64,000 bases of DNA from Ganoderma boninense (lineage: Eukaryota; Basidiomycota; Agaricomycetes; Polyporales; Polyporaceae). Of the stretch, positions 4,507 through 58,898 are shown in pieces; position 1 is the stretch's first letter; each line of letters opens with the position of its first letter. The stretch is from the NCBI GenBank assembly GCA_002900995.3, contig CM035305.1, forward strand, positions 496,001-560,000. The letters are read 5' to 3'. The notes under the pieces are model-generated. The model saw only the letters and a list, made by a program, of their open reading frames with translations, was not told the origin of the DNA and did not search any database. The position numbers were made by a program, and so were the translations under genes.

Positions 4507-5000
4507 CTACAAGTCCTGCTCCACCGGGCTGCCAGCGGGAATTATCTCAGATATATGACGAATCATGACTGTCCCATCATCCGCTGCGGACCACAGCATC
4601 GTCCCGTCTGGGGAGAACGCCACGTGCACCACCAAGTCTTCATGGTCGCAAAGCTTTGCGACGCACGTCCCATCGCTGACCCTCCACAAACGCACCCTGC
4701 CATCATCGCCTCCAGAGGCGACATACTTCCCGCACGGAGAGAAACGTGCATCCTGAACCGGTCATAAGGTCGTCTCTGGGCTGTCTCCCTTGAGTTCCAA
4801 GATTTCGACGCCAGAGTTGATATCCCACACTTTCACCGTTTCACCGACGGCCGCTTCGGAGTCCGCCAGCGCGCTCTCCTCATCGCCAGGTCAGTGCACG
4901 CGCAGCGGCTCTTGATCTTGCTCTTGCGGTTGATCCTGTCACATCCAAGTAGTCTTCCCCAAGAGACCGTCAAGACTGTCGCACGGCTTCGACTCTACGC
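4507..5000 (-). pseudogene. WD40-repeat relic related to the F-box/WD40 gene at 52.7 kb
   Basis: On the minus strand one frame encodes two WD40 blades, 'VKVWDINSGVEILEL' and 'ASGGDDGRVRLWRVSDGT', then 'VAFSPDGTMLWSAADDG'. The last blades match the C-terminus of the gene ending at 56,705, which has 'RVKVWDVNARVELWEL' and 'LLWRVSDGTCVAEL'. An in-frame TGA at 4764-4762 separates the blades, and upstream homology fades by about 5,000. No F-box part is present, so this is a truncated, broken copy. The chance that a functional short protein survives is low. Confidence 0.75.
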
Positions 5001-7163
5001 TAATGTACAACATGAGGTTTCCTAAATTACTACTGCCTTGAGTCTGCGGGTTCACAGCGAGCCTCTTCACCGAGCAATATCGAGGATAGACCTTCATACC
5101 GTCGATAGAGCTCAGTGGTCCGGCGGTAGCAGACGAAAAGGTGCAATGTCGTCATATTGCCACCTCCGCACCAGTCACCAGACACAGTCAGTGTTCGTGC
5201 GATCCGCGTGAGCAACACAAGCCACGACAGACTGCCCAATTCTCGACGGAAGAATCCAAGCCCACATCAAGGATATCGATGACTCAGAGCGTTGCCAGTC
5301 AGACTGGCGCAAACACTCCAGCACAACCTACAACTCAACCCGGAAGCTCGCACTGCCAGGCAAGACGTGTCTCCGAGTACTATTCGTAAACAGACGCAGC
5401 GAGCCGGACGCCGCGCGCACTACACCGTGACGACAATGCGCGCGGCCACATACCCATCCCGCCCGCGGGTCTGTTTCATGGAAAGCAAAGATGCTAGATC
5501 TCCTGTAGAATGTGCAACCATATGCGTCTCCTGCTCCCTCGAAAACCGGAGGACTCGGACGGCATTCATAACCGTCGCGCGTCGGAGCCACCGCAGGAGC
5601 TGCGCAGATCCTACAGCAGGGGCGCGGCCGCTCAGCCTCAGGTGGTTCGGCTGGACCGTTACGGGTATGCGCGGCTGTTAGCAGAACGAAAACGGCGGGC
5701 TTGGGTATCAGGGTGGGCCTTACACAGTCCCGGGATGCCTCCATTGCAAGTGGCACTTCACGTCGTCTGGATTCTAGACTCCGCTGAAAATAAGTCTACT
5801 GTACGGAGATGCAGATGCAGGGCATGTGCGCCGCAAGGATCAGCATGCGTACGTATGCACAAAAAATACGCGACTCGTCCTCGTCATCGACCCCAGACAC
5901 GTTGGCGAAAGTGCGGTCCTGGCTCTGGAGGCTGGTGAGCGTGTATTCGAAACCAATGAACAGAAATCGGACAACAATATCTAGGTGAATGGTCACCGCT
6001 CGCTGGTGAAACAGGTTGTTCAGGGACTAGTAGTATTGGCCCTGCGAAATGTGGACGACGGACTTTTGCCATTGGCGGGCTCGTTTTCTGGATACAGGAA
6101 GATGAAGTCGTGTGCGTCGAGGCGGGTCCACGTGCAACAAGATGCCGTACTCTGGTGGGCCGATGTCTGCCAACATGGCCTCGCATATGGAGCCCCTCCA
6201 ATCGTGTGCGACGCGGACCTACACTTCTCCCGCTTGGGTATGAGCCGTGCGCGCTGCGCAGCTTTGAATGCGTGGCTGTATTGGTTCAGCGTACGAAAAT
6301 AGAATAACGTACAATCTGGCCACGGCGCAACGGCCCAATATTTTCGTCCCTGCACTCTTGTGGCGTACCACGGATAGCTTGGTTGGTTTGAAGGAGGCTG
6401 CATTGCCGAAAAGTGAGGCTGCTGCTGCAAGACATCACCAGTTTTCGCTAGGCGGTCAGGGAAACATGGAAGCTGTGTGGAGAGTGTTGACGGTGAGGCG
6501 GTTTCAGCTGGCAAGGGCCGAGGCAGGGGCCGCAGCTGATATCAAGAGGCATATCGTCGACTCTCCAAGTGGAAGATGGCATTCAAGTGGTTCGATTAGC
6601 GAAAATGGGGCAGCTGTCGACAGCAGGGGGAGAAAAGACGTCGGAGGCGGGCACAAAGAGCCAGAAACTGAGTACTGAGCGCTCAGTTGTCTGCTTTCTC
6701 AGCTCATTCCGAGCCTGAGCAGCGCGACGCAACAAGCCGCAATGAGGCTCGAGAAGACTCGGCAAGCGCAATTCAGAGGAGAAGGAGAAGGAGAGGGACC
6801 TGTGAGGAGCGAGAATCGCGGGATGCACCTGCGGCAAGCTAATTTAAGGGCAGAAAGTCGGTGACCAAATAAAGCCAAACATACTTCGTGGCTGTGCCTT
6901 TCCGGGATCGACCGGTTCCCTCTGCCCATCCAGCCACAACCTCTCCGGCTCTCTCGTCTCGCTGAGCCTTGTTCTATGTCCTCCCCCCCCTCGCTGTAGA
7001 ATTAGAATTATGTCTACTTCAGACTTGAGGCCTTGAGGACTCTCGTAATTCACCGTACACTGGGCACTGATATTGGCACTTGCACTCGCGACTGTTCCAT
7101 CACGTCCGCGCTCGAACTTGAATACCCCAGTCACGTCACTCTACGGCGGCAGCCAGCACCACC
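5001..7163. other. Intergenic stretch, nothing recognised
   Basis: No frame shows a domain, a consistent splice pattern or similarity to other genes of the window. Confidence 0.4.
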
Positions 7164-55700: not shown

Positions 55701-56705
55701 GGCTCTGACGACTCTACCATCATCTTGTGGGACACAAAGGATGGAAGCATAGCCCAGCAATGGGCCTTTCCCACCTACCGAACAGTTTGCTCTCTTGCAT
55801 TCTGCCCGCACAGTCGCTGTCTAGTGGCTGGAGGAGAGGACGGGAAGGCGGTGGTCTGGGAATTTTCGGGAAATGGTCCGAGTCGCATGATCACGACTCT
55901 CGACTCGAAAAACACCGGCGCAGCCACAGCCTGCGCATGGTCCAGCGGCATGATAATTGCCATCTTATCGTCGCCTTCCAGCCTGCAGCTGTGGGATGCT
56001 ACTTCATTCCATCCCCTCGACGCACTCGAGATATCAGGATCTATTGGGTTCTATCCCGGCGGGGTTTACCTTGGTCCCCAGGTCATGTTCTCTCCAGACG
56101 GGCGCTGGCTCACCTGTATAAGCCAGTGCAGCACTAGAAGCAACATCCCGTCCTTCAACACTCTCAACTTGGATAATTTCCCCATTATCACCTTCAACCT
56201 CGAGACGGAAGCCATGCGCCCAATGATTTGGAGAGCTAGGACTCCGTTCACGGTGCAAGTCTTAGACGAGTCGGACGTTACGAACACGAGCGTCGGGAGG
56301 CTATGTGTCTCAGAAGAGGGCGGGCCAATTGTCTCTACGCTCGACGGCAACCTTGCTTTGAGGGTGTTGTCGGACGGGAGAGTGAAGGTATGGGATGTCA
56401 ATGCCCGCGTCGAGCTCTGGGAGCTCACCGGACACAAGGGGACATTTGAACACTACATGGCGCATTTCTCTCCATCCGGGAAGTATATCGTGTCCGCAGC
56501 GGAGACGGTTTCGAGTCTCTTATGGAGAGTCAGTGATGGGACGTGCGTGGCGGAGCTTCCGGCCGTGGAGGTCAGTGGCAAATTGGTGACGCGCTTTGCA
56601 TTCTCCCCGGATGAGAATACCCTGTCCTTCGCAATGTCGGACGGGACTGTTCAGATTTACAATATTCCTGACATGATCTCGATTACGTATTCTCAGGGCC
56701 GGTAG
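52741..56705 (+). pseudogene. F-box/WD40 fusion gene split by a 1.6-kb insertion
   Basis: Host exons: 52741-53122 continuing at 54733-54929, then 54992-55115, 55181-55573 and 55624-56705. Without the insert the model is about 725 residues. It starts with an F-box-like segment ('FPWELLERVISHSGDY', 'LLRSFTLTCRDLLPRS') and continues with LRR-like sequence ('IHTLRLFHITFSTSLELAHL'). From about residue 366 come WD40 blades ('ASGSDDSTIILWDTKDG', 'LVAGGEDGKAVVWEF', 'VLSDGRVKVWDV', 'SLLWRVSDGT'). The last intron (GTGAGT...TTCAG) joins the two halves in phase, so they form one gene. F-box plus WD40 is the design of SCF substrate receptors. The insert at 53,123-54,728 introduces a stop at 53,176-53,178, so the allele should be null unless the insert is spliced out. 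A WD40 relic of the same family is at 4.5 kb. Confidence 0.82.
53123..54728. mobile_element. 1.6-kb insertion in the F-box/WD40 gene with TTTG target duplication
   Basis: The coding sequence stops making sense after CTGTTTG (53,116-53,122) and resumes after a second TTTG (54,729-54,732). Removing the insert plus one TTTG restores the reading frame exactly ('GFRLF' to 'ADDIHTLRLF'). The ends share GCAAA, GCGA and TGCAGGG in inverted orientation, with small gaps. TGTAGG/CCTACA motifs are dense in the first 250 bp and last 200 bp, like subterminal repeats of DNA transposons. The 10-mer ATACGCACCT occurs three times (53,610, 53,921, 53,971); its complement resembles splice donors. No transposase domain is visible, so the element is probably non-autonomous. 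The superfamily cannot be named from this. Confidence 0.78.
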
Positions 56706-56776: not shown

Positions 56777-56789
56777 TGAATGGCTTGCG

Positions 56790-56791
<2 letters not shown>
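56777..56791. repeat. Left 15-bp target-site duplication of the retroposed element
   Basis: tgaatggcttgcgtc, directly abutting the T29 tract. An identical copy lies at 58,884-58,898. Confidence 0.93.
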
Positions 56792-56825
<34 letters not shown>

Positions 56826-58883
56826 CTCGTGTATTGGCAGTATCTACATATACAGGTTTGCTTCTCGTCTGTAACGTTGACAGCGCACACGCTATCCCGC
56901 GTTTGTTTGACCATGGCGGGTCCGCGGCCTGAGACCAGTGGCGGATAGGGAATCGGAAGTAGGTTACCAACCTACAACCGGGCGGCAAGTGGAACGTAAT
57001 CACGACAGATGCTGTCAAAGCGATCTGCCGGAAGAGTGATAGCCTTCTCGAGTACGAGAAGGGTAGAGTAGGTGATCAACAAGGACATGAAGATATCACC
57101 AATCCACTGAGGGGCGGTGGTCCTTGAAGACGAGGAGTAGTGTGCCGAAACCGTTTTTTGAGACGGCGGCGGTTTGTCAGGATCGAGGGCAACTAGCCAC
57201 TCCGGTAGGTAGCAGCCAGTTGTCCGGTTGGGGGGTGGATGTAGAGGAGTCTCAGACGAAGGGGTGAGTCTACGTCTGATGGGTACGGCCCGATCTCTTG
57301 GGCCCACCGCGTGGGTTTTTGGTATAAGTTTCCAGACGAGAATCTCGCCACATGGAAACTGGATTGGTACGATTTTGTGGTCGTAGGTAGACAAGTCTTT
57401 GTCTACCCACTTCGATTCGAGTATTATTTCAGTCAGCCAGCGTGGAGGGAACAAGTCCCGCTCGGCGCTAGGCCAAAGACTCCACAGCTGGGTGGCATTG
57501 TTGGTAAAGGTGTTTGTGCCGTAGTGTTCGGTGTACAAGCGTACGGCTGACAGGTTATCCTCCGCGATTTGGAGGAGGTGTTGATCTCCGGTGTATCCAT
57601 ACTAATACCAGAATGGATTCCAGAAAGAGCGGTTGTCGTCAATCCGCTGTAGAGCAGGATTGTAACGGTTGGATGTAAGGCTCCCTGCACAGAGGGCCTG
57701 TTGGCCAATGGCGACGATGGTCACCGGTGCAGGGTCAGGGGTTTCGATGAGATTGGAAAATTCCGTTTGGAATTTTCCAAAGTGTTGGATGATTTTCAGA
57801 GCTGTCCAGAAGGGGAACAGGACATTGACTCTGACAGCGGTTTGTATGTTGTACACTCCAAGGAGGACGGGGACCTCAGCCAGGAGTGAAGGTGGGGTAT
57901 GGAAAACATCTGCAATGCAGACGTAGTGTGTGGTGTATTTTAGAAGCTCATCAGTGTAGTCGATGAGTTGATGGACGCTGAGGCCAGAGCATGCTATTTC
58001 CCCAAAAGCAGGGGAAGCTCGGTAGGAGGCCTCATCGGGTGCAGTGAGGCGTATATACGCCAGGTGAGTGATGAGACACTGCAAGCGTGGGACGTATGGC
58101 AGCGTATTTTCGGGTAAGAAATATATAAAATCATCGGGGTTTTTGAGCCCGACGATCTGTGGTGTACAGGAGTAGGGGGTCCCATAGCAGAGACCCGCGA
58201 AGGAGTTACCGGGTGCTCGGGGGAGAACTGATCCGGCCCGAGTAAAGTGAAGATGAGGGGGTATGCGTCCAAGTGGAGTAAGACTCACACGTCGGGCAGC
58301 TTTGTGGGTCATGTGGTCCTGCGCTGATAAGCGCGGTGGATAAGGGATCGATGGGGTCCCGCGCGCTGAGGATGCGTCGGCGGGACGGGGATGAGTGGAG
58401 GAATACGGGTGTCGCGATGGCTCAGCAACACTCGTGGATGGTTTGGGGGAAGGTGAGGGGGCAGTGGGTGGCCTCCTCAAGAGTGGTGGGGGAGGAGGAG
58501 GGACAGTATCTGTCTCCTCGTCGGAGTCGGCGTCAGTCCAGTCGGACTCATCGTCGGATGTCCCAAAGGACGAGAGTGTCCCGCGCACTGAAGATGTGTC
58601 GGCGGGACAAGTGGGTTTAGGGGAAGACAGGCGTTGCGTAGAGGCAACGTCTGTGGGTGGGTGGGGGATGTACCTGGAGGGCGCGCTGCGCGTGGTGATC
58701 GCATCGCTTGGCCCTCCAGATCCCGCCTGGATGGCACTTGGATGCATGTTGGTCTCTCCTAGACCGAGGAAAGGGGAGGGGGATTAGTTCTGGGTTGCCC
58801 TCGGTACGACAGATGGTATGGATTGCAGTGCGATAAAAGAGGCGCCCACTTGCGTGGTGGTGGTAGGAGAGAAAGGAGCGGTG
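56792..58883 (-). mobile_element. Retroposed, polyadenylated RNA copy, 2,092 bp
   Basis: Read on the minus strand the insert has a 136-nt leader, an intronless frame of about 590 codons (58,747-56,972), a 151-nt 3' region and an A29 tail (56,820-56,792). Perfect 15-bp direct repeats flank it (56,777-56,791 and 58,884-58,898). Poly(A) plus a long target duplication is the signature of LINE-mediated target-primed reverse transcription. No reverse transcriptase is encoded, so the RNA was mobilised in trans. It lies 86 bp beyond the stop of the F-box/WD40 gene. The source RNA is not identified: a cellular mRNA, a non-retroviral RNA virus segment or a non-autonomous retroposon are all possible. 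Confidence 0.9.
56972..58747 (-). pseudogene. Intronless 592-codon frame in the retroposed copy, one internal TAG
   Basis: The frame runs from ATG 58,747 to TAA/TAG at 56,972 with one in-frame TAG at 57,604-57,602. Residues 1 to about 190 are Ser/Pro/Thr-rich with an acidic patch ('DDESDWTDADSDEETD') and a run of prolines, and are probably disordered. Residues 190-590 look globular and rich in aromatic and branched residues ('DDFIYFLPENTLPYVPRLQC', 'LLGVYNIQTAVRVNVLFPFW', 'TQLWSLWPSAERDLFPPRWL'). I see no zinc knuckle, protease, reverse transcriptase, kinase or transporter motif. In a genome where neighbouring genes average several introns, an intact-length frame without introns fits a copied RNA. 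The single stop suggests recent insertion. Function unknown. Confidence 0.8.
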
Positions 58884-58898
58884 TGAATGGCTTGCGTC
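58884..58898. repeat. Right 15-bp target-site duplication of the retroposed element
   Basis: Identical to 56,777-56,791; it marks the 5' end of the inserted copy. Confidence 0.93.

What the first reader, a model, noticed from the sequence alone, without database searches (positions are those of the whole stretch)
56777..58898. Retroposed intronless ORF with A29 tail and perfect 15-bp target duplications
Seen directly: T29 at 56,792-56,820 on the plus strand, tgaatggcttgcgtc on both sides, and a minus-strand frame of about 590 codons with one stop and short UTRs. This is a near full-length copied RNA. The protein has a disordered Ser/Pro-rich N-terminus and a globular aromatic-rich region, with no motif I can name. 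A roughly 2.1-kb RNA with one capsid-sized ORF and an A-tail would suit a fungal RNA virus segment, for example partitivirus-like, captured by a LINE. A processed pseudogene of an uncharacterised gene, or a mobile ORF-bearing non-autonomous retroposon, fits equally well.
Basis: partly seen in the sequence, partly recalled or inferred. Interest (0 to 1): 0.85.

Follow-up and report, generated by a model that had tools for sequence, protein, structure and literature searches.

The report
Protein-coding retroposon borrowing a LINE tail
This is one copy of a small jumping element in a fungus that carries its own selected protein gene and seems to be copied by the machinery of an unrelated, larger jumping element, because it wears that element's RNA tail.

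Summary
In detail: T29, perfect 15-bp target duplications and a minus-strand frame of 592 codons with one internal stop. It is not a lone retrocopy. The genome holds four dispersed copies: two full-length, of which the one on contig 1 (93% identical) has an uninterrupted frame, and two 5'-truncated. Three of four have perfect 15-bp duplications. No intron-bearing or tail-less parent was found in the assembly. From the stop codon to the poly(A) all four carry the 3'UTR of an 8.75-kb endonuclease/RT/RNase H LINE of the same genome; 13 of 13 tail copies found, LINE and non-LINE, have the same last 20 bases, and 12 of 13 insertions abut GA. The coding part shows no relation to the LINE proteins. 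Codons 138 onward evolved under purifying selection (dN/dS 0.19) and have relatives in Ganoderma. No virus match was found. Best reading: a non-autonomous, LINE-tail-dependent retroposon family with its own conserved gene, a protein-coding counterpart of SINEs, MINE and HAL1. What the protein does is unknown; structure prediction failed (pLDDT 32 and 34).

The parts
58884..58898 (.). target-site duplication at the element's 5' end (element sense GACGCAAGCCATTCA)
58748..58883 (-). 5' untranslated region, 136 nt; same 5' end within about 3 nt in the contig-1 copy
56972..58747 (-). frame of 592 codons counting its stop, one internal TAG; Ser/Pro-rich codons 1-137, conserved part after that
   Evidence: relatives
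57602..57604 (-). internal TAG stop; the contig-1 and contig-4 copies are open here
58658..58747 (-). N-terminal 30 codons, a stretch shared with two of the related proteins (18 of 26 and 19 of 36 residues identical)
58349..58638 (-). span holding two copies of a 68-nt direct repeat (72% alike, 222 nt apart) within the Ser/Pro-rich linker
56821..56971 (-). 3' untranslated region, homologous to the 3'UTR of the LINE from about the stop codon to the poly(A)
56792..56820 (-). poly(A) tract, A29
56777..56791 (.). target-site duplication at the element's 3' end

Best explanation
The element is a member of a small non-autonomous retroposon family. SHOWN: four dispersed copies with unrelated flanks, a common 5' end in the two full-length ones, 5' truncation in the other two, A27-A32 tails, perfect 15-bp duplications in three of four; a 3'UTR shared with a two-ORF LINE of the same genome (endonuclease, reverse transcriptase and RNase H domains); the same GA insertion signature as the LINE; a coding region without detectable relation to the LINE's two proteins, most of it under purifying selection. 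INFERRED: an RNA encoding the unknown protein once acquired the LINE 3'UTR at its stop codon, by template switching or 3' capture; because this tail is what the LINE reverse transcriptase recognises, the chimeric mRNA has since been copied in trans by target-primed reverse transcription as one unit. SPECULATIVE: the protein is kept because it helps its own RNA (packaging, nuclear entry, or escape from host silencing), acting like an ORF1/Gag protein. The copy in this window is a full-length insertion about 70 bp downstream of a WD40-repeat frame, in opposite orientation, and carries a stop that the contig-1 and contig-4 copies lack.
For: Copies and tails. Tail homology: 4 of 4 family copies and 9 LINE or tail-only loci share the 3'UTR or its end, and the last 20 bases are identical in 13 of 13. 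In a tree of 12 of the 13 tails the four family tails form one clade (support 0.999), so the fusion was most likely made once and then amplified. Junction at the stop codon in 4 of 4. LINE: long copies on contigs 10 (22-bp duplication, both frames open) and 8 (15-bp duplication), about 8750 bases each; RT E 4.9e-23, RNase H 4.8e-12, endonuclease 9.6e-8. Insertion signature: 12 of 13 3' flanks start GA, p 1.3e-12 against 1/12. Selection: W against the contig-1 copy 63 synonymous changes on 446 sites, 57 non-synonymous on 1324, dN/dS 0.28, Fisher 3e-11; codons 138 on 0.19, 3e-15; contig 1 against contig 4 0.20 (55 and 37 changes); W against contig 4 0.29 (10 and 9), p 0.012. The single gap between the two full-length frames is 3 nt. 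The contig-1 frame is uninterrupted, 592 residues. Two of the related proteins share the N-terminal motif.
Against: Only four copies, so the family is small. The fourth (contig 11) has no duplication that I could find. The shared 3'UTR has almost no covariation (1 of 36 predicted pairs), so a recognised RNA structure is not shown; that the LINE needs this tail is inferred. Purifying selection does not say whether the element or the host gains. Codons 1-137 show no purifying selection (dN/dS 1.8; 4 synonymous and 19 non-synonymous changes) and too few synonymous changes (p 1e-4), which this reading does not explain. I could not read the DNA round the related proteins, so their tails are unknown.
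Confidence: 0.75

Rival explanations
1. Retrogenes of an ordinary host gene: a cellular gene happens to have a LINE 3'UTR as its terminator, its mRNA is retroposed now and then, and the selection signal is that of the host gene, whose source copy is missing from this assembly or has been lost.
For: Only four copies; selection on codons 138 onward; the three named relatives are annotated as plain hypothetical proteins in Ganoderma.
Against: The assembly (74 contigs) shows no fifth locus by protein or DNA search, apart from one chance-level match at E 0.13; the only uninterrupted full-length copy itself has poly(A) and a 15-bp duplication; the copies fall into at least two lineages (W and contig 4 against contig 1), so retrocopies gave rise to further copies or several sources existed.
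Confidence: 0.14
2. HAL1- or HeT-A-like element: the protein is a much diverged ORF1/Gag of another LINE lineage, and the element is an internally shortened LINE that swapped its 3'UTR. (This differs from the best explanation only in where the protein came from; the two are not exclusive.)
For: Same architecture as ORF1-only elements (one ORF, poly(A), helper in trans); low-complexity N-terminus followed by a more conserved part, as in many ORF1 proteins (recalled).
Against: No Pfam family in any of 7 sequences scanned (2 copies from this genome, 5 relatives); profile comparison with the helper LINE's ORF1 and ORF2 gives probability about 0.2% each. The profiles are thin (7 and 2 sequences) and other clades' ORF1 were not compared, so remote kinship is not excluded.
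Confidence: 0.18
3. A fungal RNA virus segment (for example a capsid gene) captured as cDNA by a LINE.
For: RNA of about 2.1 kb with one ORF of plausible size; no family known in the libraries searched.
Against: No relative among viral contigs (61 stretches matched a pattern, 0 confirmed; I take that set to be poor in RNA viruses); the three named relatives of five are fungal proteins; the 3'UTR is the LINE's and the four copies share one fusion, whereas independent captures would carry the virus's own end.
Confidence: 0.03

Closest known systems
SINEs with LINE tails in fungi (Mg-SINE with MGL in Magnaporthe; SINE2-1_BG with Tad1-24_BG in Blumeria; PMC3747384, passages seen)
   Same: 3' end homologous to a partner LINE; presumed use of the LINE machinery through the common tail
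   Different: Those are listed as tRNA-derived; here the head is a 2-kb protein-coding mRNA-like sequence with no tRNA gene and no Rfam family above its gathering score
MINE (WEIRD-MGL chimeras) of Magnaporthe (PMC2104539, passages seen)
   Same: Fungal bipartite retroelement, full-length foreign RNA at the 5' side, LINE at the 3' side, 10-20 bp duplications
   Different: WEIRD is non-coding; the LINE parts are 5'-truncated copies and the authors infer template switching from the organisation and diversity of the elements. Here one junction at the stop codon is shared by 4 of 4 copies and the foreign part is a selected ORF
HAL1 half-L1 (PMC5753468, passage seen) and HeT-A (recalled; search listing only)
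   Same: Non-LTR element coding for a single non-RT protein and relying on another element's RT
   Different: HAL1 encodes only ORF1p and HeT-A only Gag (the latter recalled); this protein shows no detectable relation to the helper's ORF1
Eg-R1/ROPIP1 of Blumeria (PMC6022598, passages seen)
   Same: Non-autonomous fungal retroelement reported to encode a peptide
   Different: A 74-residue peptide without a canonical start codon, on a SINE-like element with at least 3000 genomic insertions
Sadhu of Arabidopsis (PMC2848041, passages seen)
   Same: Non-SINE, non-autonomous retroposon of about 900 bp with poly(A) and 7-16 bp duplications, few copies
   Different: Non-coding; source of its machinery not known

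Membership tests
LINE-mobilised retroposon | poly(A) or A-rich 3' end, target-site duplications, frequent 5' truncation | tested here: met
   A27-A32 in 4 of 4 family copies, 15-bp duplications in 3 of 4, truncation in 2 of 4
LINE-mobilised retroposon | same insertion signature and 3' end as a LINE present in the genome | tested here: met
   12 of 13 sites GA; 13 of 13 tails with the same last 20 bases
SINE | RNA polymerase III head (tRNA, 5S, 7SL) and no coding capacity | tested here: not met
   no tRNA gene, no Rfam family above threshold, 592-codon frame with selection on codons 138 onward
MINE-type chimera | foreign full-length RNA fused to a LINE 3' part | tested here: met
MINE-type chimera | non-coding 5' part joined to variously truncated LINE copies (as described in PMC2104539) | tested here: not met
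   one junction in 4 of 4 copies; coding 5' part
HAL1 / ORF1-only LINE derivative | encoded protein is homologous to a LINE ORF1 | tested here: inconclusive
   no profile relation to the helper's ORF1 and no Pfam; other clades' ORF1 not compared
Processed pseudogene | an intron-bearing or tail-less parent gene exists | tested here: not met
   protein and DNA search of this one assembly finds only the four retrocopies; the other nucleus or other strains were not available
Captured mycovirus segment | encoded protein related to viral proteins | tested here: inconclusive
   no match, but RNA viruses of fungi may be thinly covered and no confident fold was obtained

The most novel reading that the evidence does not exclude
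A class of protein-coding LINE parasites in basidiomycetes: elements that have borrowed the whole LINE 3'UTR as a pass to its reverse transcriptase while keeping, across species that differ by about 65% in the protein, a gene of their own whose product favours their RNA over the LINE's or shields it from silencing.
Probability: 0.3. Interest if true: 0.78.

Novelty: new variant of a known kind. Interest (0 to 1): 0.55.

Why it matters
The non-autonomous LINE dependents that I know of are mostly non-coding (SINEs, MINE) or carry a LINE's own ORF1 (HAL1). A LINE-tailed family with an unrelated gene under purifying selection would show that LINE parasites can carry genes of their own. It gives a testable pair: a helper LINE with open frames and the 151-nt tail are both in the same genome. 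It also makes some anonymous hypothetical proteins of Ganoderma candidate mobile-element proteins.

Tried and rejected
Virus capture: a viral contig scan with a 5-sequence profile gave no relative. Known domain: Pfam on the two window pieces, on the contig-1 conserved part at E 10, and on 7 aligned sequences (2 own copies, 5 relatives) gave none; PHROGs none; PDB by sequence none up to E 1, by profile one chance-level hit at E 0.87. Fold: two AlphaFold jobs with 7 sequences gave mean pLDDT 32 and 34; I ran no fold search because a model this poor gives meaningless matches. Segmental duplication: rejected, the flanks of the copies do not match each other. Empty site or second allele: each flank has a single full match in the assembly, so there was no empty site to compare. 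Overlapping gene in codons 1-137: the +1 frame changes less (11 of 136 residues against 19 of 137) but is closed by a stop in the window copy; left open. The bacterial-type promoter scan is not informative here. The GA signature was tested against a flat 1/12 only, not against sampled genomic sites. Literature: nine searches showed me, in their listings, no LINE-tailed element with an unrelated selected ORF; the library lacks most subscription papers, so this is no proof of absence. Papers opened, passages only: PMC2104539, PMC2848041, PMC8955403 (nothing used), PMC6022598, PMC5753468, PMC3747384.

The protein search scores only about 8000 candidates that share most words, so restriction to Ganoderma is not shown: of 5 relatives, 3 are named (all Ganoderma) and 2 carry no name. 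That the helper LINE is of the Tad1 clade is a guess from its architecture (recalled, no tree made). The species of the window is not known to me; a polypore-like basidiomycete is a guess.

Full report
OBSERVATION. The 15-base duplications (56777-56791, 58884-58898), the T29 (56792-56820) and the interrupted minus-strand frame (58747-56972; TAG at 57604-57602) are as described. The 15-mer occurs twice in the window and twice in the 55.6-Mb assembly, at these places only. The element is 2092 nt with its A tract.

COPIES. A DNA search of the assembly found 13 places. Four carry the coding part: the window copy (W); contig 1, 6159758-6161825, 93% identical over the full length; contig 4, 2497288-2498804, 99%, starting at base 547; contig 11, 1503253-1503803, 98%, starting at base 1507. 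A translated search with the contig-1 protein found the same four and one chance-level match (E 0.13). W and contig 1 begin at the same base within about 3 nt. Target duplications: W GACGCAAGCCATTCA, contig 1 GACGTTCATGTTCTC, contig 4 GACATCCTCCAGGAC; none found for contig 11. Flanks do not match between copies. The contig-1 frame is uninterrupted (592 residues). Contig 4 is open over the part it keeps (the TAG that one search lists there lies upstream, outside the element), and contig 11 over its 134 codons.

THE TAIL. The other nine places match only the last 80-132 bases. By upstream sequence seven are LINE copies (two of about 8750 bases, five truncated or rearranged) and two are tail-only fragments of 180 and 108 bases with their A tracts. 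The LINE has an ORF1 with cysteine/histidine clusters visible in the translation (recognised by eye; Pfam gives nothing above its cut-off) and an ORF2 with endonuclease, reverse transcriptase and RNase H. On contig 10 both frames are open and the duplication is 22 bp. Homology between the retroposon and the LINE begins at or just after the stop codon of both and runs to the poly(A); upstream of that only chance-level matches were seen. In 12 of the 13 tails aligned, family tails are 76-88% identical to the 8 LINE or tail-only sequences and 95-100% to each other, with 13 separating columns, all within the first 43; the clade has support 0.999. The last 20 bases are identical in 13 of 13, with no further copy up to 2 mismatches. 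Of 13 insertions, 12 have GA directly after the A tract; the exception is the contig-4 LINE. The consensus fold of 12 tails (-32.9 kcal/mol) closes a long hairpin near the 3' end, but with 1 of 36 pairs covarying this is mostly conservation of sequence. Fungal SINEs that share tails with LINEs are known (PMC3747384, passages), and a paper on zebrafish LINEs reports how a LINE protein recognises its 3' tail (PMC4176376, title and start of the abstract only).

SELECTION. Between W and contig 1, 63.0 synonymous changes fall on 445.7 sites and 57.0 non-synonymous on 1324.3: dN/dS 0.28, Fisher p 3e-11. Codons 138 onward (a split I set where the contig-4 copy begins) give 0.19 (p 3e-15). Contig 1 against contig 4 gives 0.20 (55 and 37 changes); W against contig 4 gives 0.29 (10 and 9 changes, p 0.012); the three pairs with contig 11 give 0.23-0.34 on 4 to 13 changes, too few to judge. 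In a placement simulation with the observed substitution types, the gap region left out, 116 differences would give 79.5 non-synonymous on average (lowest of 400 runs 68); 56 were seen, the stop counted among them. The one gap between the two full-length frames is 3 nt. Against this, codons 1-137 have 4 synonymous and 19 non-synonymous changes (15 expected without selection, 95% range 10-20): no constraint on the protein there, yet fewer synonymous changes than elsewhere (p 1e-4). Differences by codon position are 12/7/4 there and 14/9/46 in codons 138-400. I cannot explain this; an overlapping signal, a mosaic origin or chance clustering are open.

RELATIVES. Protein searches found five relatives: three named, in Ganoderma sinense and G. 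leucocontextum, and two unnamed; 32-38% identity to the contig-1 part aligned, with conserved stretches such as DPDKPPP in four of the five and PPRWLT in four of the five. The N-terminus is shared by two: 18 of 26 residues identical in P0001 and 19 of 36 in P0003, which supports the start codon. Between that motif and the conserved part the proteins of this genome have a Ser/Pro-rich stretch about 160 residues longer than in P0001. No Pfam, PHROG or PDB family matched. Two structure predictions failed.

READING. All four copies share one ORF-tail junction, so the chimera most likely formed once and multiplied as a unit, unlike the MINE chimeras of Magnaporthe, whose LINE parts are 5'-truncated copies and which their authors ascribe to template switching (PMC2104539, passages). 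No tail-less or intron-bearing source was found in this assembly. With a LINE of the same tail, open frames and the same GA signature in the genome, trans-mobilisation by this LINE is the simplest account. The protein shows no relation to the LINE's two (hhalign probability about 0.2% each), so a HAL1-type origin (PMC5753468, passage) is not shown, though kinship to another clade's ORF1 cannot be excluded with such thin profiles. What the protein does is inference only: I take it that a retroposon keeps a gene because its product helps its own RNA.

VERDICT. Real, well-formed and more interesting than a processed pseudogene: a new variant of the LINE-dependent retroposon. The score is capped by the small copy number, the unknown function and the unread surroundings of the Ganoderma relatives.

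Noticed in passing
window 58337-58747: Codons 1-137 of the frame show an inverted pattern of change (positions 12/7/4; 4 synonymous and 19 non-synonymous) against the rest of the ORF; the +1 frame changes less than the coding frame but is closed by a stop in this copy.
   Followed up: partly
window 55887-56705: WD40-repeat frame ending about 70 bp before the insertion, tail to tail with the element; a 69% DNA match to part of it (window 56382-56558) lies at window 4651-4836 on the other strand.
   Followed up: partly
L024 reverse complement 2719-2799, 5426-5516, 6302-6460: The truncated LINE on contig 4 (1.51 Mb) has inverted repeats of 80-90 bp at 93-96% identity close by, as if inserted in or near another repeat.
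   Followed up: no
L018 3219-3448: Three self-complementary stretches of 54-73 bp some 400-600 bases beyond the contig-11 copy, possibly a hairpin-type repeat.
   Followed up: no
L021/L028 (contig 10, about 2382402-2391151): An 8.75-kb LINE with both frames open, A26 and a perfect 22-bp duplication: looks recent and possibly active.
   Followed up: partly
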